In this document: positions 48,158-62,590 of the stretch, piece by piece
How positions within the stretch are numbered: the stretch's first letter is position 1
Layout of the letters: each line of letters opens with the position of its first letter
NCBI RefSeq assembly: GCF_022539665.2
Contig: NC_081334.1
Coordinates: 8,154,424-8,218,423, forward strand
Source: Daphnia carinata
Lineage: Eukaryota; Arthropoda; Branchiopoda; Diplostraca; Daphniidae
Reading direction: 5' to 3'
Length of the DNA: 64,000 bases
Position numbers and translations under genes: made by a program
The notes under the pieces: generated by a model
The model's database searches: none
Told to the model about the DNA's origin: nothing
The model's input: only the letters and a program-made list of their open reading frames with translations

Positions 48158-48367
48158 CCGTTTTTTTTCTTTTTCTTTATCTTTTAAAAAATTGTTTTCC
48201 ACTTTTGTATTGGAATGCATTGATAACTATAAAATAACCCGCACCTTAACCTCGGATGCTATCCAGCACCCGCCCCTCAACCTGGCATGCTATGCATCAC
48301 CCCGCTACACCAACGAGCTATTAGAAAAGCTGTCTCGCTCGGCTATTTTTAAAGCTTACGGCTTTCG

Positions 48368-48399
48368 GCTATCCAGCATACGTGCGTATGCTGGATAGC
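48368..48399. repeat. Perfect palindrome at left arm
   Basis: GCTATCCAGCATACG and its exact inverse are separated by only TG. The palindrome joins two oppositely oriented copies of the terminal motif, as expected at a fold-back or a head-to-head junction. Confidence 0.85.
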
Positions 48400-49399
48400 A
48401 TCCTAGGTTGAGGTGATGGCTTATCAGGTGTAAGGCAAGTTTTTAGTGCCATTATTGTCACCCGCACCTGATAAGCCAGCACCTCAACCTAGCATGCTAT
48501 CCAGCACCCTCACCTCAACCTCGGGTGTTATCCAGCACCCGCACCTCAACCTGGGTTGCTATGCCTCCCTCCGCTATACCAACGGGCTATTAGAAAAGGT
48601 ATCGCGAAAGGCTATTTCAAAAGTTATTCGTAAAATCTATGCTGCTGCCTGGCGGGGAATGGAAGAAGCGACGTTATGGAGCTATCAGATAGGAATCTTG
48701 ATAGCTCGCATAGGGCACTAGCGCCACCTGGCCTCTGGCTACCAAAATAATTGTCATCACCAGAGTACGCTTTGAAAGCGGAACGTTTTCATACAATACG
48801 TTTTATTGCACATCCTCTGCTAGGTACAATAGTCTTTTCGATTCGAATTCCCAGTACGTAGCTCCTAAAACATTTAACGTTTTAAATGAAGGTGGGATTG
48901 GCGTGATGTCACTGGACGTTGTATTTAAGGTTTGCCTTACTTGTGGATGTACCGTGGAAATTTCTCTACTAGAAGTTCACACTGCAACATGGTATGAACA
49001 GCCTTTAATTTCATTCAGAATTCTACCTAAACGTACACATGTTGCAATTCTATGTCCTAATTAGTGTGAAAGCAGTGGAACGTTCTACTTTAACTACTGC
49101 TCGGAGACCAAAGCTTGCTGTTGACATTGATTTACTGAAATTGTACTTAGGTAAGTAACATTCATGAAGTAACATATCACAACGTGGATATGATTTTTGT
49201 GTTTACGTTCAGACCAGAGAGTCCCTGTTGCAAAGATTGCTGAATTGCTGAAGATCAGCAGAAGAACTTTGTTCCGAGTTTTAAAGGAGACGCATCTTAC
49301 AGCTAGACCGAATTACACAAAGATAACTAATGAACAACTAGACGCACACCTCACAAATATGTTACGATGCGACCCAACGTTTGGTAATGTTACTTCCTG

Positions 49400-50033
49400 G
49401 ATTGGCGGTGAAATAGGACTGAAACGAAATAGGACTGGAGAAATAGGACTGAAACTTTCCAGTCCTATTTCTACCGGAGAAATAGGACTGGGAGAAATAG
49501 GACTGACTTTTTAAAACTTTTAGGACAGTCCTATTTCTCCATGCCAGCAGTCCTATTTCTCCTCGGCATCAGTCCTATTTCTCCTTAGAAATAGTCCTAT
49601 TTATTTTATTTTGTTCCAATAGGAACGATATGCCTCCAATCCGGTAGGCAACATATTGCGTAAGAGCGTCGGCTTATATCCATTTCCCTTTGTAAAAAGT
49701 CGATGGTGTTAATTCATAACTTAAATGGTTCACCAAATATTTATCTTTTATCCTATTTTAATTTAAATTGCAGGGGACCATTAAATATGTTATATCTAAT
49801 ATAGTTCATTTAATAAAATACTACAACGGCCACACCAGAAATATTTATTAAATTTTTCTTACTTTTTAGTGCATAAATAACTTTTCCAGTTGCACTCATG
49901 TTGTACTTGCTAATACAACTATCAGCAACGAATAACAAGCAAGTCTTACCATATCGGTAGCGCTCTAACCTGTGACACGGGTAGTCCTATGTTCGATTCT
50001 CCGTGGTTACATTTCTTCTGAGGTTTTTAATAA
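49400..50033 (+). repeat. Left TIR of MULE-1
   Basis: The first 210 bp consist of GAAATAGGACT words in direct order, then the inverted AGTCCTATTTC words. The rest is unique sequence that includes a tRNA-like stretch at about 49958-50012 (GGTAGCGCTCTAACC, then TGTTCGATTCTC). Confidence 0.9.
49958..50012 (+). promoter_or_regulatory. tRNA-like Pol III A/B-box pair in MULE-1 TIR
   Basis: CGGTAGCGCTCTAACC resembles an A box and ATGTTCGATTCTCC a B box (consensus GGTTCGANTCC). Spacing is about 25 bases, as in tRNA genes. A full cloverleaf with matching acceptor stem is not visible. The same sequence is repeated inverted at about 52683-52737. Confidence 0.4.
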
Positions 50034-50199
50034 TTATTCTATGAAAGAATTTTTGGGAGAAAACAATTACTGGTGTTTAGGGTAATACTTCTGAAATGGC
50101 AAATAATGGTAGTTCTGACTTCCCAATTTTCACATGCGGTTTCAGCATTTCAGCCAGTCAGTATTTAGATCTTCATGGTGTAGGTTGTCGACGGTGCTT

Positions 50200-51160
50200 C
50201 GAATGTGCCGTGAATGTGCCGTGAATGTGCTGTGAATGTGCTAAACATCTGTTGTTCGTGTCCAGCGGCCTGCCCAGTTCCTGCCCAGCTGCGGATTGTT
50301 TCTAAGGAGTCGCAAACCGTAAGTACATTTTCTACTTCACTAGTGCTGGGCCGTACCCGGACACATTGTATCAGGCTCGGAACGGATAGGCAACGGTTCG
50401 AGTGCTGGCATTGTTAATTTAAGTGTAAGGGCATTGAGACTTGTCACCTCAATGGGCACAGGTATCGGGATTGGTTTCACAGTGTCGTCGTGAAACCAAT
50501 TGTCTGACCCAGGTCAGTGGACCTTCAGTTAAATAGATATCTTAGTCGGGACGTAGGCCGACTAGGATTAGAAATATTTACGATAGTTATTTAATTACAT
50601 CTGCAAATTATGGGTATGCTACCTAACTATACTTCACGTCACTTAATGCTTTTACTTTTTTTATTGTGTTTCAACTGCTTATGTTTTACTAATTTTTTTT
50701 TCTTCTTTTTCTCCTTTGTAGGTTTTGCGTGGCAATTTTTTACAGTTTACTCAGGCCGGTTTAACGTTTTTTTATTTCTTAAGTTCTTTTTTTGCCTTTT
50801 TCATTAATTTTATTTTTCTTTTTTCATAGGGAGCTCTGATCAACGAATTCTTAAACCGTTCTTCCGGACAATTGAAAGCTTTTGCTTTCTCTTATCACTC
50901 GTTTGGTAAATGGTTGGAAGGATTTAAACATGCAAGGTAAATTCATTTATAGTTATATGGAGTACATTGGTATAATTATTGCAATTTTATTTTTTTTAGA
51001 ACAATCATCTTCTCGGGAATTGTGGCCACGAACCAAAACCATCAATCGGCACATTAGTTGTCGCTTGCACAACAAGTATTATCGTAATAATTCAAGCATA
51101 ATGTATTACATTACATATTACATTAAAATAAAAAAGTCAATTGAGATTATGTAAGTTTAT
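50200..51160 (+). other. Non-transposase half of MULE-1
   Basis: Near 50200 is a short tandem run (gtgccgtgaatgt, about three times). Several AG/GT-bounded open stretches follow, for example GALINEFLNRSSGQLKAFAF near 50830-50907. I see no family motif. It might be another captured fragment or the remains of a second MULE ORF. Confidence 0.3.
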
Positions 51161-51223
51161 TTATAAAGTATGTTAATTTGTAAACATTCGTCAAATAAAA
51201 TACATGTTACAAACAAACAAATG

Positions 51224-52275
51224 TTATTCAATTATAGACATATCTAGTTCATCCTTAATATTATTTATAGCAACATTAAGGGCATGTGAGGAAACAATAG
51301 CGGGAAAAGATGATCTAAGCTCTAAAACTATTTCTTCTAGTAGATCCATTGTAGATAGCTGCAAAAACAATGATAAGTTATAGGGAAACTTTTTTTTTTT
51401 GTAAATTTAGAAAACATACCTCATTATTTTGATAGCGCGCCCAAAGCTGGAACAGTACGGAATTCTTAAGTTGGGTCTCTTTCTTCCGGTGAGCCCTTAT
51501 TTTGTCATGGCAGAGTAGCGTGCTAGTAAGGGAAACTTCTTCGGCCAGTTTCCGCAATATCATTGTCATCTTGTAGAATTTTAAATTAGATCCGCCTGCC
51601 AACTACAAACATTTTTGTTATTAATTATTCATTACATATTATTGTTCAAATTTAAATTACCTTGTTCCATTGGTGGTGCATTCCTTCGCAGTCGTTATTG
51701 GTACGCGTTAAGATGTTGAAGCATGACCAGTTCTCAGGAGTCCAGAACTTGCCCCGAATCCAATTCCGCTCCATATAATCCATGAGTGCTGAAAGTTCGC
51801 TAGGTGCTGAGCTCTTCAACGCGTCAAACACACCAGGAATTTTACCAGCTACAAAAAATTAAAGTTCACAAATGTTATTTATGACAATTAAATATAACAT
51901 TTGTGTGCTATTTACCTGGAAGATATGCAAGGCATAGCAGGCGAAACACAAAGTCTCGCACTGGATTCGGTCCCTTGTTGTTGTAGAGGGTGGCAAGGTG
52001 AAGATCCCGGACCTTTTTCAGAACGGCTTGGCACCAGTGGAAATTGCAGCCAAAGTACTGGCAATCCACAAAGTGCCTGCGGACAGCCGTAAATATAGCA
52101 CGTTCGAAATCGGTCACGATCCGCTGGACTCTAGGAAGGGGGATTATATCCTATTACAATATAAAATTTATTATTTTTACATAACAAACTATTTGTAAAT
52201 GAGATAGTATCTATACCTTTATCTTCTCGAAGACAGCGCTATAGTCGGCTGCTCTTCTCCTGGTCATGCAAATCT
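51224..52275 (-). CDS. MULE transposase, 3' exons
   Basis: Minus-strand exons join in frame. The exon ending 52217 has MTRRRAADYSAVFEKIK. Exon 52150-51916 has PRVQRIVTDFERAIFTAVRR and FGCNFHWCQAVLKKVRDL and ends LCLAYLPG. Exon 51848-51661 has KIPGVFDALKSS, NWSCFNILTRTNNDCEGMHH. Exons 51602-51420 and 51358-51224 end at a TAA. TDFERA carries the second catalytic Asp, CNFHWCQA is the MULE C-x-H-like signature, and RTNN-CEGMH (usually RTNN-VEGWH) holds the catalytic Glu region. The upstream exons with the first Asp (DGTF-like) and zinc finger were not found; the 52280-52660 stretch has only short pieces such as LPPKWMAEHDIALLIK. The gene may be 5'-truncated. Confidence 0.75.
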
Positions 52276-52660
52276 CTTCTTTCTATTCGCCGCCGGCAAC
52301 TATCTTCAACTTCCTCGGCTTTAGCACCCATAAATCTTCTTCATCAATTTTATTTCAAAGTCAATATAAATATTAACTTAATCCTTTGGCATACGTCACT
52401 TGATGAGTAATGCTATGTCATGCTCGGCCATCCACTTCGGTGGTAGAATCCTCTTCTTGGTAAAGAAGTTGAGGAATTGTTAAAATGTTAAATTACAAAT
52501 AATTTATTTTTCGCCCATCTACCGTTATCTACCATCTCCTCTCTCATCCATTCTCTTGTATCTCAACAGTTCTTCTTGCTCCTGGTGAGGAACTAGCTTT
52601 CATACAGGCGAAGATTCATTAACATTCTTCTACTATTCATAGTAAACTTAACCGCAAATG

Positions 52661-53299
52661 TTATTAAAAACCTCAGAAGAAATGTAATCACGGAGAATCG
52701 AACATAGGACTACCCGTGTCACAGGTTAGAGCGCTACCGATATGGTAAGACTTGCTTTTTATTCGTTGCTAATAGTTGTATGAGCAAGTACAACATGAGT
52801 GCAACTGGAAAAGTTATTTATGCACTAAAAAGTAAGAAAAATTTAATAAATATTTCTGGTGTGGCCGTTGTAGTATTTTATTAAATGAACTATATTAGAT
52901 ATAACATAATTAATGGTCCCCTGCAATTTAAATTAAAATAGGATAAAAGATAAATGTTTGGTGAACCATTTAAGTTATGAGTTAACACCATCGGCTTTTT
53001 ACAAAGAGAAATGGATATAAGCCGACGCTCTTACGCAATATGTTGCCTACCGGATTGGAGGCATATCGTTCCTATTGGAACAAAATAAAATAAAATAAAT
53101 AGGACTATTTCTAAGGAGAAATAGGACTGATGCCGAGGAGAAATAGGACTGCTGGCATGGAGAAATAGGACTGTCCTAAAAGTTTTGAAAAGTCAGTCCT
53201 ATTTCTCCCAGTCCTATTTCTCCGGTAGAAATAGGACTGGAAATTTGCAGTCCTATTTCTCCAGTCCTATTTCGTTTTAGTCCTATTTCACCGGCTACC
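52661..53299 (-). repeat. Right TIR of MULE-1
   Basis: Inverted copy of 49400-50033 with only scattered differences, including the tRNA-like stretch and the GAAATAGGACT array. Confidence 0.9.
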
Positions 53300-54639
53300 T
53301 ACTTCCTGTATTTGATTTAAAGTGTCAAACAGAGTCAACAAAACTTCCCAAACAGAGTCAACAGCACCCTAAAAATTTGTGCCAAATTGCGTGTCACTTT
53401 GTAATGCATTGTTCGAACACAGGTTTCAGATGTTCAAAGGCTGCACCATTCAAAAAATATTGTTCTCAAGCCAAAACAACTGCGCGCAAGTTATGAGAGA
53501 GTTAGGTAAATGGAAAATGCACCTATGATTCAACGGATAAAGCGTCGGGTTTACAAAATAAGAGCTCCACTGGCATTGTGGCATATTGACGTCCACACAA
53601 AATGGATCGGTAATTTACTTATTTATTCTCTTATTTGGATAATCGTTTACAGTTTCCTTTAATTTTAGCTATGGGTTCATTATACACGGAGCCATCGATG
53701 GTTATTCGCGCTTGATCGCCTATATTTCCTTGGAAAATAAAAAATTTTCTGAAACTGTAATCGGCTTATTTGAGAAAGCAGTCAACGAGTGGCGCTGTCC
53801 CGCAAGCATAAGGTAAACATATTTTTGGAATTATTGGAAAATTCTCTGATGAAATACCAATAATTTCTTTATACAATCTAGGTCCGATCATGGCGGTGAA
53901 AACGTTCTAGTTGCTGATTTTATGATAAATGCAAGAGGGGTTAATCGAAAGAGTTTTCACACGGGATCATCTGTTCACAATCAGCGTGTTGAACGACTCT
54001 GGAGAGATGCAATTGAAAGATGCAACAATACTTTTATGAATATATTTGAGTAACCTCCATCGAGTTGCAAATTTAGTGCTTCTACTATTTCCTTGTCTTA
54101 CATTATTCTAGGCAGATGGAAACAGATGATATTCTTAACGAAGACTCGGATGTCGACCTTTTTTGCTTCCACATAGTAGGCTATGATTTGATTCAACGCT
54201 CGTTAAAAACTTTTCGGGAAGCATGGAACTGTCATCCTATTCGAACCGAAAAGCACCAGGCTCCTATGGAGCTATATATTAAAGGATTAGAGATGTTGAA
54301 GGAGGAACACGAAGCTGGAGTTCTTGATAATGAACCTACGGAAACTCATTCAGGTAATTATACTGCAATAATTTTCTGGAAGGCGTTTTTAGTAGTACTT
54401 TAAATGTGCCATGTAATGCTGGTTCAGGGGGAAAAACTGAAGGCGCTTTCTGAATGGTCCGATTACGCTGATGCATTTCATAGATGTGTGGTTGACAAGT
54501 TCCCAATCAATATTTCGAAAGACCAAGTTTCCTGCTTGGAAGCCGTTATTAATCCGAAATCAGTTGATATTTGGAATCTTCGAAACAAGTTTATCCAACC
54601 TAAGGCATGTGTCGTAAGATATCTAAATTTGTGAGTTTG

Positions 54640-55739
54640 CCTGTTTCACTTCAATACAGAGAAGATCATTTTCAGTGATAAAGCCTTTTGTGTTTTTTTT
54701 TTATGGGAACTCATCTGATCCTCATTATGAATGGAATATAAACTTATGCACAAATTTACAGTACTAAATTTCAGTTAGTAGTATTTTAAATCTAGGATGT
54801 CAATTGAAGTTTGGTGTTAATTGACTATGTGTCTACCTTGCGTTCGTGTGTTGACCCATTGTGATGAGCGAAATGCTGGGTTTTGACAACGAAAACCTAT
54901 GATATTTTATGATATTATGTGTGAATGTGAACCTGTGGCTTTATACTTACGTTTTATATGGATCAGGCAGATTCGTCGATATTATTTTTCGTGGCAAATT
55001 TTAATTGTTGGGTGATAGGTTAAAGTTAAAGCTGTACAATACGTAACGGTAGTGTTATTTGAATGTTCTGGACATTTACATGGAACGAATGGAGACTACC
55101 AAGACTAATTCAATTTTGTCTACATCCCGAATCAACTTCTGTTCCCCCCTTAGTCAACTGTATTAATTTTAACTGGAATGAAATGCAATTAATTAGCATA
55201 GACTTACCTGCTCAACGGCATCATTTAGTTTAACAAATCTTGTTATTTACCCGTTTTCGTGTCTAGAAAAAATATTCCCACGCCTAAACGATTGTTTTTT
55301 TAACCCCGACGGCCGAATATTTAACGCACGTGTAAGAATATTGTTAAGGGGTGTGAGAGGTTGCGTGATAAGCGTAAAATCTGAATCTTTTTGGGATACC
55401 AGTTATTAGGTTTAGGAAAGACGTGAGGGAGTCGAGGACATATTTAAGGAAGGCAGATGTAGTGAAAAAAAACCAATGGTATTGAAAATAAAAATTCGCG
55501 TTGGTTGCTTGGCGAGTTGATTGGCTAACTGCTTTCGTGGGAAAAAGGGATAGGGTAGCAGAGGCGAATCTTCAAAACTCAAAACACTTGCGCGAAACGT
55601 GAGCAAATTTTCCAGTTGACTTTTTACTTTTCAGTTATTAAGTCGATCTTATTATTGTTACAACAACTTTGGTTTTTAAAGTGGATTTTTAACTGTGAAC
55701 GAGACGACATATAGTGCACACACGGATTAAAACGGCAAC
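54640..55739. other. Spacer between integrase-like and HECT-like genes
   Basis: No coding frame with a motif. The GC content rises toward 55400-55600, just upstream of the HECT start codon, where a promoter would be expected. A 64-codon minus-strand frame at 55606-55412 is probably chance. Confidence 0.4.
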
Positions 55740-57950
55740 ATGGATCGAAAAAAATTGGGGGAAATGTTCAAGAAGTTTTTTAAACAATTGGAGGAGTCGA
55801 ACGATATAGACGAAGAGAAAGAAAAAGAGGACCAGGATTATGGTAAAAGTTCTACAATTAATTATGAATTGGGCAGTTTTGGTATTATTTTATTCTTCCA
55901 ACTTGTTCATTTTTTCCAACGCTTTTAGTAAAAAGGTAAACATTTAAAAGCTGTAACAAAATCATCCAACTAGATCCAGGTCCTTTATCATCGTGTTGTA
56001 GCTCAACAAAAAGAAACAAGCTTAAAAGGCTTCAAAAGAATCCTCGTAGGGAATCAAAACTTGAAGACGAAAGACGCCACGAACGACGCAAGCTGTTTGA
56101 TAAAAAAAGAAATGGTTTGATTTTCAAAATGTTGTGTGTTTTGGTGATTCTTAAATTTACATTTACATTTTTAGACAAACACGAATTTGAAAAAAATTTT
56201 CGATGTTTGGACAAAAAATGCCCTGTAATGCCTGTTCCTAAACCGACTAATTTAGCAGCATTAGAAAATTCTGGACTATGGGGAAGAACGGTGAAGTTTT
56301 TGGACACAGACGACAAACAAACCGTTAAAACTAAAATTGAAACGTAATGTATTAAAACAGTGTACAGACGAGCGAATTGCAATAATAATCTTCTTATTTT
56401 TAGCATTTTCCCCAAGCTTGTTGGCGGATTTAAAATGTTAAAATCACAAAAGAATGGAAAAACGTTGTACCTTATCGGCCAAGGTCCAGTTGTGGATGGA
56501 AAAGAGTTGAAGGCGGTTTTTGCGAAAAACTTTTATCTATGTCCACTCCAGAAAGACATAGTTATTGCAGACGATTCCTATTCCCAAAGCGAATCGGAAG
56601 AAGATGACTGCACGGAAACATGCGTGTATTGCGGTGAAGTTATGCCTATCGAAGTACTGGAAGCGCACACCAATGTTTGCGACAAAGAAATTCGTCAAAT
56701 GTCCGACGATGAAGCCACCGTCTTGCTGTTTGACGAAGAAGCAGCTGTACTCGATTTCGCTGGTATGTATGAACATTCGGTAGTAATCAGGATCATTTCT
56801 TGTCTTTCAGGTTTTATCTATTTACAGGAATGGAAAAAATTCATCTGCACCAAAGTCGGTTTATGGCATATTCAGACGATGCGGCCTATGCTTCTAGGGA
56901 ACTATGCGGGAACGCCATCGATATATACAGGATGAGCTACATAGAAGACGCCATCAAGATTTTAAAAGATCCCTTCTTTCTGTAAGTTGCAAGTTTTAAA
57001 GCATGCATAACTTACCTTATCTCCATTAACTCTGCTAACTGTGCCTCTTTTTAGTTCCAGGATCAAAAGGCCTTTGGTTGTTTCCTCCATTGGTGAGGCC
57101 GGAGTAGACGGAGGCGGACTTCGTAGGGAATTCTTGTCTATGATAGTAGACTACGGTAATTCTGTATTTTCTAATAAGGAAACAGATGTTGGTTTAGATT
57201 TAGCCGACATAGATGAAATCTATTACATGTTGGGGATTTTCCTTGGTAAAGTTTAATTGCTCCTCCGATTAAGTACACAATTTTTATTAATTTACTTTTC
57301 TTCCATGCTTAGGTCTAGCTGTAGTTCAAGTCGGTCTGTGCCCAAAATTTGTGATAGCGGCTTGGAAGGATTTTAACGGGAGCATCAATCGCTACCATCC
57401 GTTTATCAGAGGCTTAACGGCCTTACAGCTAAATGAGGTAACAAACCAATAAAACAACTATATTTTACACTCAGCAATAATTTGTTGTATTTCTATATAG
57501 CTACTTTGCGACAAACAAGTACAATCAATCTTTATGAACATCCCAGTTACCGTTGCTCTAATAGTGGAGTCATTAGACACCAATCCAGACCCTCTGCTCT
57601 TTTGTAGCCAAGAAACGAAGATGTGCCAAGCAATTTCGTACAATTTCTTTATTAAATTCCTAAACAACGTAGCAGATGGAAAAGTTAGTTCTCCGAACTA
57701 TGGAAAAATCACCTTGGACGACGTTTATCTTTTTTACACCGGATCAAAGATTGTTCCCATTTCTTGGGACAGTTTCCGATACAAGCTGAATTTCAAGATG
57801 AACGACGATTGTCACCGGTTCCGGCCTACAGCAAACACCTGTGTTGGATGTGCCTAACTAAATATACCAGTCGTTGAAACGTATAAGGATACGGAAGCTG
57901 GATGGATTGATGCAATTTTAGGTATCTCCTTTGGGTTTAGTCGAGTGTAA
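55740..57950 (+). pseudogene. HECT-type E3 ubiquitin ligase-like gene with C2HC finger
   Basis: In-phase exons: 55740-55842, 55974-56114, 56175-56343, 56404-56762, 56828-56981, 57054-57245, 57313-57437, 57501-57950. The N-terminus is charged (MDRKKLGEMFKKFFKQLEES). Exon 4 has a C2HC finger, TCVYCGEVMPIEVLEAHTNVC-type (Cys-Cys, then His and Cys). Exons 5-8 form a HECT domain: VVSSIGEAGVDGGGLRREFL, DEIYYMLGIFLG, LAVVQVGLCPKFVIAAW and the catalytic Cys region RPTANTCVGC. The domain would transfer ubiquitin through that Cys. A TAA at 57855-57857 cuts the chain four residues after it, yet the downstream frame continues NIPVVETYKDTEAGWIDAIL to a natural end at 57948. The stop is thus a recent-looking nonsense change. 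The family resembles G2E3-like repeats found in many animals. Confidence 0.75.
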
Positions 57951-58032
57951 TTTTTTGGCTTGTTCACCTGTTTGTGGTGTCGTATTTCATGGTTTTTTAT
58001 TCAGAATTCAATCATTTTGTTTCTTTGTAATG

Positions 58033-58601
58033 TGTAAGGATCGAATGATCTATTCCTTCACTGTCACCAAATGTAAGGTTCGAATGAAGAAATCTATCCC
58101 TTCACTGTCACCAAATGTAAGGTTCGAATGAATCCGTTCCTTACTTATAATTATTGGATAACGATGATGAACTGTATTGTTGCACTGTGTTCGAGTATTT
58201 TACAAAGACCAAATTGATAATTGACGAAAGGAGACTTACGGAGACAGTCTGACCGAGATGGCAACTGAAGCTTGGAATTAGACTGAAGCTAGAAACACAC
58301 TGACTGAAAGTTAAAGGTAGACTCGCTGGTGGCTAGAAGTAGACTGACTCAAAGCTTAAAACACACTGCCTGACAATCTGGAAAAAGGGCAACATTTATA
58401 CAGAGAAGCAAGGTCGTTTAGGATTAGGTGTCCCAACGGGAATAAATATTCTGCGTGTAAATGTAACACCTATGTGAAGAATTGGCAAGTTTGAAGGCCA
58501 GAGCCATCGGCAGATGACCTGTTGGCGGAAGAGGGGGGAAAAGGGTTGCAAGCGTGGGAACGAGAGGGGAAGGTAAGGAGTACGGTTGGCCGTTCCTTAC
58601 A
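58033..58601 (+). mobile_element. Solo LTR (569 bp) after the HECT gene
   Basis: It starts TGTAAGG and ends CGTTCCTTACA, with AATG on both sides (58029-58032 and 58602-58605). The first 120 bp contain three tandem units of about 45 bp (TGTAAGGTTCGAATGA then TTCACTGTCACC). It is related to the solo LTR at 13214-13621 through its ends and the GTGTAAAT-TAACAC block. Confidence 0.85.
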
Positions 58602-58689
58602 AATGCTTTATCAATAAAGACACTGGTGTGGCAGTCAGAAAGACTGTTTTAACGTCAGACGAACATTTTGGTTGGTTAGTTTTTTCTTG

Positions 58690-59560
58690 TTGCTTCTTCT
58701 CCATCCACTTCTTACATTTGTCATACAAACGGCAACTAGGACGTTTTCACGGCCACGATCGGACCTAAATTGTATTTTAAAAATTACTGATTTTTCATGA
58801 AATCTGCACAAGCCATTCCAGAAATAGTTTTAATTTAATCTGGCCGAATACCTCCACTCGCTGACGGCTTTCTTGAATAAAGCAATTACAGTTCCTAAAA
58901 TTGTTATTTTCGAAGGAAATGTAGGCAGTAATGAAAACACGATCATAAATGAATAAATTACCGATTCATTTTATGGTGGCCCTCAATGTGTCACAATGGC
59001 AGTGGAGCTTTAACTTTCTACACCCGATGCTTTATCCATTGAATCATGGGTGCATTTTACGTTTGCCTGATCTCCCATAACTTGCACGCAGTTATTTTTG
59101 GTACAGAACAACGTTTGTTGAAATGGTGCAGCACCTGAACATCTGCAAACCAGTGTTCGAACAATGCAGATGTTTTGTTGAGTCTGTTTGATACTGTAAT
59201 GTAAATACAATAGTTAACGTTACCAATTTGGATTACATCTTAAGACATCTGTGAGATATATTTCTAGTTCTGCATCAGATACCTCTGGTCTAGCTGTAGG
59301 ATGTGCCCTCTTTAAGACTCGAAACACAGTTTTTCTTCTGATCGTCAGCAATTCAGCAATCTTTTCAACCGAGCGCTCTGGTCTGAACGTAAACACAAAA
59401 TTTATATCCACATTGTGATTTGATACTTCATGAATGTCACTTACCTAAGTAGGCTACTCTTCCAGTAAATCAATTCGACAGCAAGATTTGGTTTCCGAGC
59501 AGTAATTGAGGCAGAACGTCCGACTGCTTTCACACTAATTACAACGTATAACTGCAAAAT
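58690..59560 (-). pseudogene. Inverted, decayed copy of integrase-like 5' exons
   Basis: On the minus strand: an exon with KIAELLTIRRKTVFRVLKRA at 59375-59224, then an intron of only about 85 bases, then the exon aligned to 53430-53609 (59138-58960), then broken pieces of the next two exons (SVEWR region at about 58870 and SDRGRENVLVA at about 58755-58720). It lacks MULE-1 and carries a CAA where the left copy has the TAA stop. Frameshifts show it is not functional. Confidence 0.75.
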
Positions 59561-59569
59561 GTGCATATA

Positions 59570-60212
59570 AAAACAAAATTCAGATGAAATTATAGGCTGT
59601 ATACATACCATGTTGCGGTGTAAAGTTGTAGCAGCGAAATTTCAACAAAGCATCCATATGTAAGGCAATCCTTAAATAAGACTTCCAATGACACCACGCC
59701 AATGACACCTTTATTAAAAACGATAAATGTTTTAGAAGCTACTTACTGTGATTTCGAATCGAAAAGACTATTGAACCTCGCAGATGATGTGCAATGAAGC
59801 GTGACGTATGAAAACGTTCCGCATATCTTTCAGAGCGTACTCTGGCAGAAATAGTTATTTTGGTAGTCAGATACCAGGTGGCGTTTGTGACTTGTACATG
59901 CTTTCAAAATTCCGATCTCATAGCTCCAATACACGGCTTTTCCCATTCCCCGCCAGGCGGCAGCATAGTTTTTACGAATAGCTTTTGAAATAGCCGAGCA
60001 AGATAGCTTTTCTAATAGCCTGTTGGTATAGCGGGGTGAGGCATAGCATACCAGGTTGAGGGGCGGGTGCTGGATAACACCCGAGGTTGAGGTGCGGGTG
60101 CCCGATAGCATCCCAGGTTGAGGTGCTGGCTTATAAGGTGCGGGTGATCATAATGGCACTAAAAACTTGTCATATCAGGTGCGGGGGACAATAATGGCAC
60201 TAAAAACTTGCC
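59570..60212 (-). repeat. Right arm of the large inverted repeat
   Basis: Inverted relative to 48434-49080. It keeps the GGCTATTAGAAAAGCTAT block, the TTTTCGATTCGAA word and the CACCTCAACC tandem motifs. The terminal GGCAAGTTTTTAGTGCC word occurs twice here (about 60150 and 60212), a small tandem duplication. Confidence 0.75.
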
Positions 60213-62590
60213 ATAGTTAAGAGGTGCGGCGCTCAAAATTTGCCCCATCGCACATTTTGCCTTCTGCCGTCTGCTGTCTGCTATATATATATACGATGGT
60301 TGCCTAGGGAACGATACTTGTGCATGACTTGTAGTTTTTGAAACCGTCGACTGCAAAAATGCTGACAATTAGAAGATAGTTACCACTTCGACCGTTCGGT
60401 GGCGCTGCTTTTCGTGGTGTTTGAGCGGGCACTCATCGCACATTTTTTTTTGGAGCGTAGCGCCAATCACGCTCAAATACCGTTAAGCGGCTCGGCCGCT
60501 TAAAAATTTAAGCGGAGCGCAAATTCGCTCAAATTTTGTGCGCGCTCACGGCAAGTCTCATATTATCCAACCATATAATTTATAGTTTAAGCACGCAAAT
60601 ACGCAATCATTCTCATTACATTAAAATTTAATTAATCATTCATTTAATTGATATTTTCGCAAATTTAAAAGTATATTTGCATCGTCTTAAAAAATGAAAT
60701 AGAGCAAAATAATGTTTCGTTATATTTTCATTAAAGAGAGTTATTGATTTAAGAAATTATATATTTACATGGCTAGAAAATGTAAAGTTACATTTAGAGA
60801 ATTAACTAAAAAAACTGACCGGCAGATGACGACTGCAGTAAAAAAAAACATTTTTTTTTTTTTGGATGGGGAGGGAGTAGAACGGATTGCCATTATACAA
60901 GAGGAAACCTGTATCTGTGAATTATCTCTTAAATAACGCAGTATGATTTAGAGATAAATAAAATATATAATACTATTAACAAAAGAAAATAATACTTTTT
61001 TTTGTATAGGTAAATTTATTTGCCTGTTAAGTGGGTATTGAATTATTTTTGAAAGTTATGTCCTCTACAGGAGTCACGTTCAATGAGGGAAGGACACAAA
61101 CCGTAGTATGTACATATACATATATTAGTAATAATAACATGTATAGTAATGCATGTGGTAGAGTCTGTACATACATAATATTAACAGTATGTATGAATTA
61201 CATATTAAACATGCATTGATTATATGGATAGCATATGTATAACAGACTACATATAGTTAATCAAAATAGTATAGATATATGTATCTTGTAGAGTACCATA
61301 CATGTCTTTCTTATAGTACTTATCTTTAAATTCTATATGTCAACTAAATTTGATTCAAGTAACTTAATAATGTATAGATGTAACTCTCAATATACCATAA
61401 CACAGATAAAGAAATAACTGAAGTATGAAGACATTACCTGCGCCGTAAATATAAGGAGAATAGCTCATTCAATAGCTGTCAATATTTTGACATCAGGATA
61501 AGCATCAGTGCCAACATTGTCAGTCTTCTTGGAACTCATCCTTCAGAATTTCGTTATAAGCTTCAATACTGGGTGACGGAAGTTGATGGCCGAGAGTCAC
61601 CATTCAAATACATCACTCTTCTGTGTACATTTTTTGCAGTCAGGCCACTTAAAAGTAATTTTTAACAATGTAAGATACTTTTGCAGTCTTAATTTTTCTT
61701 TATACTTGCCTTAACCAGTTTGGGCAACAAATAGTCAATCCTATCCTCTCTGTAATTTTCTTTTTGAACACTAATATTAACTACACTAATAAAGTCTAAA
61801 CGAGACACTATTAAACATTAATAAGTATAATTGAGAAATCATAATAAATCATTAATCGCATAAGGAGCTACAATTTTACCTTTTACAGAAAGGGCAGTTG
61901 AAAAACAGATAACAACCGAAAACAATAACATTTTTTTAAAATTATAGTCTGCTAATATCGTTTTCCACGATATACCAGAAAAACTCATCTATTCCACACT
62001 GTTAAGTTCCTCGCCTTATGGGTGAGAAGTCATTCCATGATCGTTTTCCACGATATACCAGCAGACGTTACGCGTACATAATTTACCGGGCCCGTAGAGC
62101 CGCAGAATACAATACTTTGTATTTCACAATACTGCGTCCAAATGTGACGTCCTGACGCGAGCCTGCCATGCGTTCAAGGCGTTTAAAAAAAAGTAGAATT
62201 TAATTAAAAAGGCCCTCATGTTTTTGGCTTAAAATTTCTAAAATCATGTTTAAAAATGATAAAATTTTCATGTGAAACTGAGACAACTAAAGAAAAAATC
62301 GATTCGATCACTGACGTAGGTTACTCTGTTCAGAAATTCCGCTTAGAAACCATTTTTAAATGCTACACATTTCCAGGAGAAAGAACGTAATCAAATTAAA
62401 CAAACGTAATCTATCGGAGTAATTCTTGAATAGATATTCTATTTTTGCTAATACTACAATGAATCAGCGGGAATTCAGAATTTCGCCACAGTACTAGTAG
62501 CCTGACGAAAAAACTCGATTCTGCCAACTTTAGCACTTAATTCTAGATGGCGTTGCAAGTTTGCCTTGGTAAATTCACCTTGCCAGCAAC
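60213..62590. other. Intergenic, no gene seen
   Basis: AT-rich DNA with low-complexity runs (poly-A/T at 60840-60865, TA-rich at 61090-61330). A GC-rich palindrome lies at 60483-60503 (TTAAGCGGC-TCG-GCCGCTTAA) in an otherwise AGCG-rich 100-bp patch. No sustained ORF. Confidence 0.5.

What the first reader, a model, noticed from the sequence alone, without database searches (positions are those of the whole stretch)
48230..60212. Large inverted-repeat unit pairing a DD34E integrase with a HECT ubiquitin ligase
Seen: long inverted arms (48434 onward and up to 60212) enclose two co-oriented multi-exon genes. One has a DDE triad ([21 protein letters not shown]); the other has a C2HC finger and a HECT domain with its catalytic Cys. 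Known: integrase-core genes and G2E3-like HECT genes are separately amplified in several animal genomes. Inference: together they form one eukaryotic DNA transposon of about 7.4 kb in which a ubiquitin ligase travels with the transposase, perhaps to control transposase level or host factors.
Basis: partly seen in the sequence, partly recalled or inferred. Interest (0 to 1): 0.88.

Follow-up and report, generated by a model that had tools for sequence, protein, structure and literature searches.

The report
Daphnia transposon carrying a ubiquitin ligase
A low-copy jumping gene of a water flea carries, besides the enzyme that moves it, a second gene that looks like a protein-tagging enzyme (a HECT-type ubiquitin ligase), and both genes show signs of selection while the element spread; what the second gene does is unknown.

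Summary
The finding holds up. Window 48431-60215 is one copy of a low-copy DNA transposon in what is very probably the Daphnia carinata genome. Its ends read TATGG...CCATA; arms of about 1.5 kb enclose a DD34E transposase and, on the same strand, a divergent HECT-like gene. Without a later 3.9-kb MULE and a ~570-bp insertion it is about 7.3 kb.

The same arms, order and orientation recur on contigs C6, C8 and C9, collinear over 4.7 kb at 92-94%. Flanks tested at four loci do not match. All 29 transposase and 25 HECT rows lie in this family. Pairwise dN/dS is 0.12-0.51 (transposase) and 0.34-0.52 (HECT), so HECT was probably selected, not idle cargo.

Corrections: the right arm is a decayed mirror of the transposase 5' half; the window copy is dead; the target duplication is unproven (one 5/6 match); a G2E3 link is unsupported. 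New: both proteins carry a C-x2-C-x11-H-x3-C finger.

By termini and transposase it resembles IS3EU. Passenger genes are known there; my paper searches showed no HECT ligase. The HECT domain itself scores below Pfam's cut-off, and function is inferred only.

The parts
48431..60215 (+). Transposon copy, terminus to terminus (TAAGGC... / ...GCCATA), including nested insertions
   Evidence: Terminal motif TATGGCAAGTTTTTAGTGCCATTA found 30 times in the genome with up to 3 mismatches, 0 for the reversed control; ends fixed
48431..49399 (+). Left arm, outer part (terminus, 31-bp subterminal repeats, transposase exons 1-3); the arm continues after the MULE at 53309 to about 53936
   Evidence: Inverted-repeat blocks; arm comparison
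58700..60215 (-). Right arm: inverted, decayed copy of the terminus plus the transposase 5' half up to RSDHGGEN
   Evidence: Inner block: right arms of different copies 89.8-98.1% alike, left against right 77-81%; inverted pairs
48479..48552 (+). 31-bp subterminal tandem repeat, left arm (2.4 units)
60043..60126 (-). 31-bp subterminal tandem repeat, right arm (2.7 units)
48906..54634 (+). DD34E transposase gene, 8 exons read by hand: 48906-48991, 49065-49150, 49213-49383, 53423-53609, 53669-53812, 53882-54049, 54112-54354, about 54428-54634; 1-bp deletion near 53597 breaks the frame
   Evidence: Exons guided by D. carinata P0002 and D. magna P0001; Pfam PF24764 E 1.3e-62 on exon-joined letters; deletion seen in alignment
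48933..48991 (+). Transposase N-terminal finger CLTCGCTVEISLLEVHTAT(C), C-x2-C-x11-H-x3-C; last Cys completed by exon 2 at 49065
   Evidence: Sequence; pattern seen in 4 of 5 left-arm regions examined, not found in 1 whose left arm is truncated
53588..53993 (+). Catalytic triad D (53588), D (53886), E (53991)
   Evidence: Sequence; alignment of copies
55740..57950 (+). HECT-like gene, 8 exons: 55740-55842, 55974-56114, 56175-56343, 56404-56762, 56828-56981, 57055-57245, 57313-57437, 57501-57950; in-frame stop at 57855 in this copy
   Evidence: Splice sites and multi-copy alignment; Daphnia pulex relative P0121, E 7.7e-72
56621..56680 (+). C2HC finger CVYCGEVMPIEVLEAHTNVC of the HECT protein
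   Evidence: All four ligands retained in 5 of 5 copies aligned
57840..57842 (+). Presumed catalytic Cys of the HECT C-lobe (RPTANTC)
   Evidence: Aligned with PTANTC of host HECT domains; conserved in D. pulex P0121
49400..53299 (.). Nested MULE-like element in transposase intron 3 (not part of the transposon)
   Evidence: 9-bp duplication TACTTCCTG at 49391-49399 and 53300-53308, shown against uninterrupted C9 copies; arms 98%; MULE domain E 4.1e-4, 21.2 bits, below the 27.6-bit cut-off
58033..58601 (.). Later ~570-bp insertion absent from the four other copies aligned

Best explanation
This is one decayed copy of a low-copy, two-gene DNA transposon, very probably of Daphnia carinata. It works like the IS3EU group: a DD34E transposase with N-terminal helix-turn-helix domains presumably binds the subterminal repeats in long inverted arms and moves everything between TATGG and CCATA (arms, gene order and separate insertion sites are shown; the chemistry is inferred from the family). 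The second gene encodes a HECT-like protein, probably a ubiquitin ligase, that moves with the transposase (shown) and was kept by selection (supported by dN/dS). Most likely it is a helper that adds ubiquitin to a host protein, or to chromatin, at the donor or target site so that transposition escapes silencing or is repaired successfully (inferred, about 0.35). Self-limitation of the transposase is the next likeliest role. The long arms arose when the transposase 5' half was duplicated in inverted order before the family spread (supported by arm comparison); parts of them were later homogenised.
For: Same arms, gene order and orientation in C4, C6, C8 and C9, collinear over about 4.7 kb at 92-94%. 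Flanks tested for C4, C6, C8 and C9a show no similarity; only the C9 twins match each other. All 29 transposase rows, 25 HECT rows and 26 PF24764 rows lie in this family. Pairwise dN/dS: transposase 0.12-0.51, HECT 0.34-0.52; upper 95% bound below 1 in 17 of 20 comparisons, which are not independent of each other. The D. magna relative matches IS481 (E 5.6e-12) and IS3 (4.6e-10) models; the modelled D. carinata protein resembles IstA and retroviral integrases. HECT-like: all 8 PDB sequences matched by the profile up to E 10 are HECT ligases, best E 0.0079; C-lobe profile alignment superposes the Cys; the D. pulex relative is named HECT domain-containing by a source.
Against: Target duplication not established: 1 near-match among 4 copies with both ends. 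All five copies aligned carry lesions or insertions, so activity is history. HECT similarity is weak (Pfam E 0.086 for C4, 0.0049 for C8, both below the cut-off; the D. pulex relative matches no Pfam family; hhalign probability only 8.6%). 0 of 54 PF00632 rows in the genome fall on these elements. One HECT exon relic stands alone on C5. No expression or biochemical data. Pairing outside D. carinata could not be examined; no D. magna HECT partner appeared in the protein search.
Confidence: 0.8

Rival explanations
1. The HECT gene is a passive passenger trapped between two inverted transposase copies (a composite), moved by the element but of no use to it.
For: The right arm is a decayed mirror of the transposase 5' half, as expected of two head-to-head copies. 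Passive transfer of accessory genes between fungal transposons is described (PMC12730594, passages).
Against: HECT dN/dS 0.34-0.52 with upper bound below 1 in 9 of 10 comparisons. No terminal motif (up to 4 mismatches) remains in the window between the two ends. HECT follows in each unit that is not cut within the transposase gene.
Confidence: 0.15
2. The ligase limits its own transposase: it ubiquitinates the transposase, whose N-terminal finger may bind ubiquitin, and so keeps copy number low.
For: Very low copy number (30 terminal motifs in 108 Mb). The two proteins share one finger pattern. RAG1 autoubiquitylation is the title of a work cited in PMC4411706 (reference-list entry).
Against: No physical data; low copy number has many causes.
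Confidence: 0.2
3. The copies are segmental duplications of one host locus with unrelated neighbouring genes.
For: The C9 pair is a segmental duplicate (flanks 100% over 734 bp), and C8 has two duplicate pairs.
Against: Flanks tested for C4, C6, C8 (older host copy) and C9a share nothing; breaks coincide with the terminal motif.
Confidence: 0.03
4. The second gene is not a working ubiquitin ligase: a HECT relic reused for another purpose, such as a scaffold or ubiquitin-binding protein.
For: Sub-threshold or absent HECT scores.
Against: Presumed catalytic Cys and N-lobe GVDGGG signature conserved between copies and in D. pulex apart from V to Q; C-lobe motif PTANTC matches host ligases.
Confidence: 0.15

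Closest known systems
IS3EU (with GingerRoot), eukaryotic DNA transposon superfamily (PMC10045372, passages)
   Same: TA..TA termini; transposase akin to IS3/IS481; no HHCC motif found; usual 6-bp duplication compatible with the C6 copy
   Different: Arms about 1.5 kb including transposase exons; HECT-like gene; C2HC finger at the transposase N terminus
Fungal TET+ IS3EU families (PMC12730594, passages)
   Same: Termini TAYGG..CCRTA, fitted by TATGG..CCATA; extra enzyme genes (TET/JBP, alpha-kinase) inside the element
   Different: Accessory gene is HECT-like, on the same strand as the transposase; animal host
Ginger1 transposons with OTU or Ulp1 domains (PMC2836005, passages)
   Same: Integrase-type transposase combined with a ubiquitin/SUMO-pathway enzyme
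   Different: Those remove ubiquitin or SUMO and are domains of the transposase; here a presumed ubiquitin-adding enzyme as a separate gene
Chapaev and the inferred TransibVDJ ancestor of RAG1-RAG2, with a RING finger (PMC4411706, passages)
   Same: E3-type domain in a transposon; two-gene element in the RAG case
   Different: RING rather than HECT, fused to an unrelated transposase

Membership tests
IS3EU | TA..TA termini | tested here: met
   TATGG...CCATA at both ends of C6, C8 and C9a; window left end TAAGG
IS3EU | Usually 6-bp target duplication | tested here: inconclusive
   C6 ATTATT/ATTATG, 5 of 6, chance 0.009; none in C4, C8, C9a nor in the two short derivatives with both ends, compared by eye
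IS3EU | DDE transposase related to IS3/IS481 | tested here: met
   D. magna relative P0001: NCBIfam IS481 E 5.6e-12, IS3 E 4.6e-10, both far below their own equivalog cut-offs
IS3EU | No HHCC motif before the core | tested here: met
   N terminus is a C2HC finger plus helix-turn-helix; no HHCC family among Pfam matches
IS3EU | Transposase groups with Repbase IS3EU proteins in a tree | not testable with these tools
   No Repbase sequences held
HECT E3 ligase | N-lobe plus C-lobe in order | tested here: inconclusive
   N-lobe matched to E6AP (E 0.0079); C-lobe to PF00632 positions 236-297 (E 0.0049, below cut-off)
HECT E3 ligase | Catalytic Cys in the C-lobe | tested here: met
   PTANTC aligned with host HECT domains; conserved in D. 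pulex
G2E3 subfamily | PHD/RING-type fingers N-terminal to HECT (recalled) | tested here: not met
   No family at E 0.1 over the 531-aa exon-joined protein
UBZ4 ubiquitin-binding finger | C-x2-C-x11-H-x3-C spacing (recalled) | tested here: met
   Present in both proteins
UBZ4 ubiquitin-binding finger | Recognised domain or fold | tested here: inconclusive
   No Pfam UBZ family on either stretch; transposase model pLDDT under 50 there

The most novel reading that the evidence does not exclude
The element carries its own ubiquitin writer and reader: the HECT ligase marks chromatin or a replication/repair factor, and the transposase, which carries a finger of the same C-x2-C-x11-H-x3-C pattern as the ligase, is recruited to that mark, so the transposon steers its own excision or insertion by a ubiquitin signal it makes itself.
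Probability: 0.12. Interest if true: 0.88.

Novelty: new variant of a known kind. Interest (0 to 1): 0.62.

Why it matters
[quoted passage not shown] A separate, apparently selected HECT-type gene inside an integrase-type transposon would put the adding step into the element and makes that proposal testable with two proteins. It also warns annotators: integrase-core and this kind of HECT-like gene in Daphnia genomes may be transposon genes rather than host genes.

Tried and rejected
G2E3 origin: rejected. Segmental duplication as the general explanation: rejected. Shared retroelement insertion in C6 and C8, an early idea of mine (note): rejected, because the C8 LTR is not found at the C6 junction. 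My first impression that the MULE interrupts a transposase exon was also wrong: by the exon reading it lies in intron 3. Viral relatives: one scan of IMG/VR with the transposase confirmed none. HECT search with the 531-aa protein: no hit among 7994 scored candidates; the domain-only search gave one hit among 1499 candidates, D. pulex. Single-sequence model of the D. pulex protein failed (pLDDT 31). Host source for the N-terminal HECT exons: 21 of 22 rows lie in the elements and 1 is a 45-residue relic on C5. Target duplications of short arm-only derivatives: two with both ends compared by eye, none found. A C8 pair of ends 24.9 kb apart gives a 4-bp TTTA match, judged too weak.
Full report
WHAT WAS CHECKED. 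The window lies at G000:C4:8154424-8218423 of a 108-Mb genome. Protein P0002, named Daphnia carinata LOC130686971 by its source, sits on a contig of 8,392,112 bases, the exact length of contig C8, so the host is very probably D. carinata. One search finds the outer arms and, inside them, a younger pair of arms (434 and 210 nt blocks at 98%) belonging to a repeat with at least 40 copies (40 of 131 candidates scored).

THE NESTED ELEMENT. Aligning the window to an uninterrupted copy shows that 49400-53299 is an insertion flanked by the 9-bp duplication TACTTCCTG. It carries a MULE-like transposase fragment (PF10551, E 4.1e-4, below cut-off). By my exon reading it lies in an intron of the outer transposase gene. 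A second insertion of about 570 bp (58033-58601) is absent from C6, C8, C9a and C8c.

TERMINI. The 24-base terminal motif TATGGCAAGTTTTTAGTGCCATTA occurs 30 times in the genome with up to three mismatches, and the reversed control not at all. It marks both ends of C6 (5200537-5216601), C8 (716295-731977) and C9a (9660113-9675974), and in the window 60215 and, with one change, 48431. Lengths of 15.7-16.1 kb in C6, C8 and C9a reflect later insertions.

COPIES. Transposase rows: 29 of 29 lie in units of this family; HECT rows: 25 of 25; Pfam PF24764 rows: 26 of 26. Units with arms, transposase and HECT are C4 (window), C6, C8 at 716-732 kb, C9 at 9.66 Mb and its inverted twin at 1.23 Mb (whose right end apparently lies at 9.59 Mb). 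A further C8 unit at 1351-1372 kb appears to be interrupted by about 6 kb between the genes and about 8 kb within HECT; I computed this from coordinates and did not sequence through it. A second version of it is split between 640 and 1333 kb. One truncated transposase copy at C8:732 kb ends before HECT. The window's 4.7 kb from transposase intron 3 through HECT aligns collinearly to C6 (94.3%), C8 (93.8%) and C9a (91.7%). Flanks of 320-813 bp were compared: C4 left and right, C6 left and right, C9a left and right, C9b left, and for C8 the left flank of the older copy in which the C8 copy is nested. Only the C9 twins match. Of 41 arm rows, 25 are in these units and 16 are at 10 other places without a transposase-core or HECT row, as expected of short derivatives.

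TARGET DUPLICATION. Only C6 gives a candidate: ATTATT against ATTATG, five of six; random 6-mers from the same flanks reach this in 0.9% of draws. C8 sits inside another copy's arm with about 215 bp of that arm missing. The left ends of C9a and of the window abut arm fragments. The duplication length is therefore not established.

ARMS. Right arms contain an inverted, decayed transposase 5' half. In the inner block, right arms of different copies are 89.8-98.1% alike, but left against right only 77-81% (within a copy: C4 78.8%, C9 81.0%). The inverted duplication therefore predates the spread. In the outer part, C6 and C8 right arms resemble left arms (left against right: C6 99.3% over the first 300 positions, C8 99.6% and 97.7% in two blocks), while in C4 and C9 left and right are 81-89% alike, which indicates homogenisation in the C6/C8 lineage.

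TRANSPOSASE. Exon-joined letters match PF24764 (E 1.3e-62). The D. magna relative P0001 (68% identity, 97% coverage) matches IS481 and IS3 models below their cut-offs. 716 proteins of 1861 candidates score E <= 0.001; among the best 120 listed, those with names are from water fleas, sea urchin, molluscs, fish, hydrozoans, a ribbon worm, beetles and the fungus Rhizophagus. A model of P0002 with 31 sequences (mean pLDDT 73, pTM 0.48) resembles IstA and retroviral integrases (best E 1.8e-6; query TM-scores of the rows shown are 0.22-0.35). In the window copy a 1-bp deletion after WHID breaks the frame.

HECT-LIKE GENE. Eight exons give 564 codons including the final stop in the window copy, with one internal stop; the C8 copy reads through that point and ends in a normal stop, but has two stops further upstream. 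Domain evidence is weak singly but consistent: PF00632 E 0.086 for C4 and 0.0049 for C8, both below cut-off; 8 of 8 PDB sequences matched by the profile up to E 10 are HECT ligases (E6AP, pub2, UBE3C; best E 0.0079); the C-lobe profile aligns with five host HECT domains so that PTANTC superposes, although hhalign gives a probability of only 8.6% and E 0.0039. The one homolog found, D. pulex DAPPUDRAFT_258962 (E 7.7e-72, 45% over 98% of the searched part), is named HECT domain-containing by a source but matches no Pfam family itself. None of the 54 PF00632 rows of the genome is in the element, so this lineage is far from the host ligases.

SELECTION. Pairwise dN/dS is 0.12-0.51 for the transposase (exons 4-7, 210-219 codons) and 0.34-0.52 for HECT (433-537 codons). 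The upper 95% bound is below 1 in 17 of 20 comparisons; the three exceptions are C6-C8 for each gene and C9a-C8d for the transposase. The comparisons share copies and are not independent. Codons with gaps or stops were left out. Because copies decay after insertion these ratios should overstate dN/dS during active life. Intron divergence is 1.6% between C6 and C8 and 4.6-9.7% between the others.

SHARED FINGER. The transposase N terminus (CLTCGCTVEISLLEVHTATC) and the HECT protein (CVYCGEVMPIEVLEAHTNVC) both have C-x2-C-x11-H-x3-C, the spacing I recall for UBZ4/RAD18 ubiquitin-binding fingers, with 9 of 20 residues identical. Among the 121 proteins held (the best 120 of the 716 transposase relatives, and the D. 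pulex HECT protein) only D. carinata P0002 has the pattern; the D. pulex HECT protein does not. Shuffles give 5 in 24,200. All ligands are kept in 5 of 5 HECT copies and the exon-1 part in 4 of 5 left-arm regions (the fifth is truncated); in the mirror copies, two ligands are lost in C4 and C9, while the exon-1 part is still present in C6, C8 and C8c. D. magna P0001 keeps three of the four ligands. Pfam does not recognise the finger and the model is of low confidence there, so ubiquitin binding is a hypothesis.

WORKING AND NOVELTY. Mobility as a unit is supported by the copies; transposition chemistry is inferred from the family. A role for the ligase is inferred from selection and from the precedent of ubiquitin-pathway domains in transposons (PMC2836005, PMC4411706, passages). 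Passenger enzymes in IS3EU are known in fungi (PMC12730594, passages). My searches of the held library showed no paper describing a HECT gene in such an element, judged from titles and abstract openings; some searches listed 20 of 35, 20 of 874 and 20 of 158 papers, and searches found none. Repbase reports and most subscription journals were not searchable. I therefore file it as a new variant of a known kind: IS3EU-like, with the target duplication inconclusive and tree placement not testable here.

Noticed in passing
window 49400-53299: Young MULE-like repeat, 98% arms with CAGTCCTATTTCTCC tandem units, 9-bp duplication; at least 40 copies (40 of 131 candidates scored).
   Followed up: partly
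window 58033-58601: About 570-bp insertion with ends TGTAAGGA...TCCTTACA, a possible 4-bp duplication AATG and a 44-bp tandem repeat; absent from the other copies aligned.
   Followed up: no
L077 (G000:C8:716690-725700): LTR retroelement with two 246-bp repeats (99% alike) inserted in transposase exon 3 of the C8 copy; C6 has a different insert of about 8.9 kb nearby.
   Followed up: partly
G000:C9 1.23 Mb and 9.59-9.66 Mb; G000:C8 640/1351 kb and 1333/1372 kb: Duplicated blocks in inverted or displaced positions, each holding parts or all of this transposon; real rearrangement or assembly artefact not decided.
   Followed up: no
window 48237-48430; L064 573-795; L065 before 814: Left ends of three of four full copies (C4, C8, C9a) abut arm fragments of other copies, suggesting nested insertion or recombination between arms.
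   Followed up: partly
L085, L086, L087, L088, L089: Only the outermost 22-66 bases of the arm occur here on otherwise unmatched sequence, perhaps ends of other families using the same transposase.
   Followed up: no
L069 (G000:C1:9679000-9680900), L070 (G000:C5:5457000-5458600): Short arm-only derivatives under 1 kb with both ends, candidate miniature elements of this family.
   Followed up: partly
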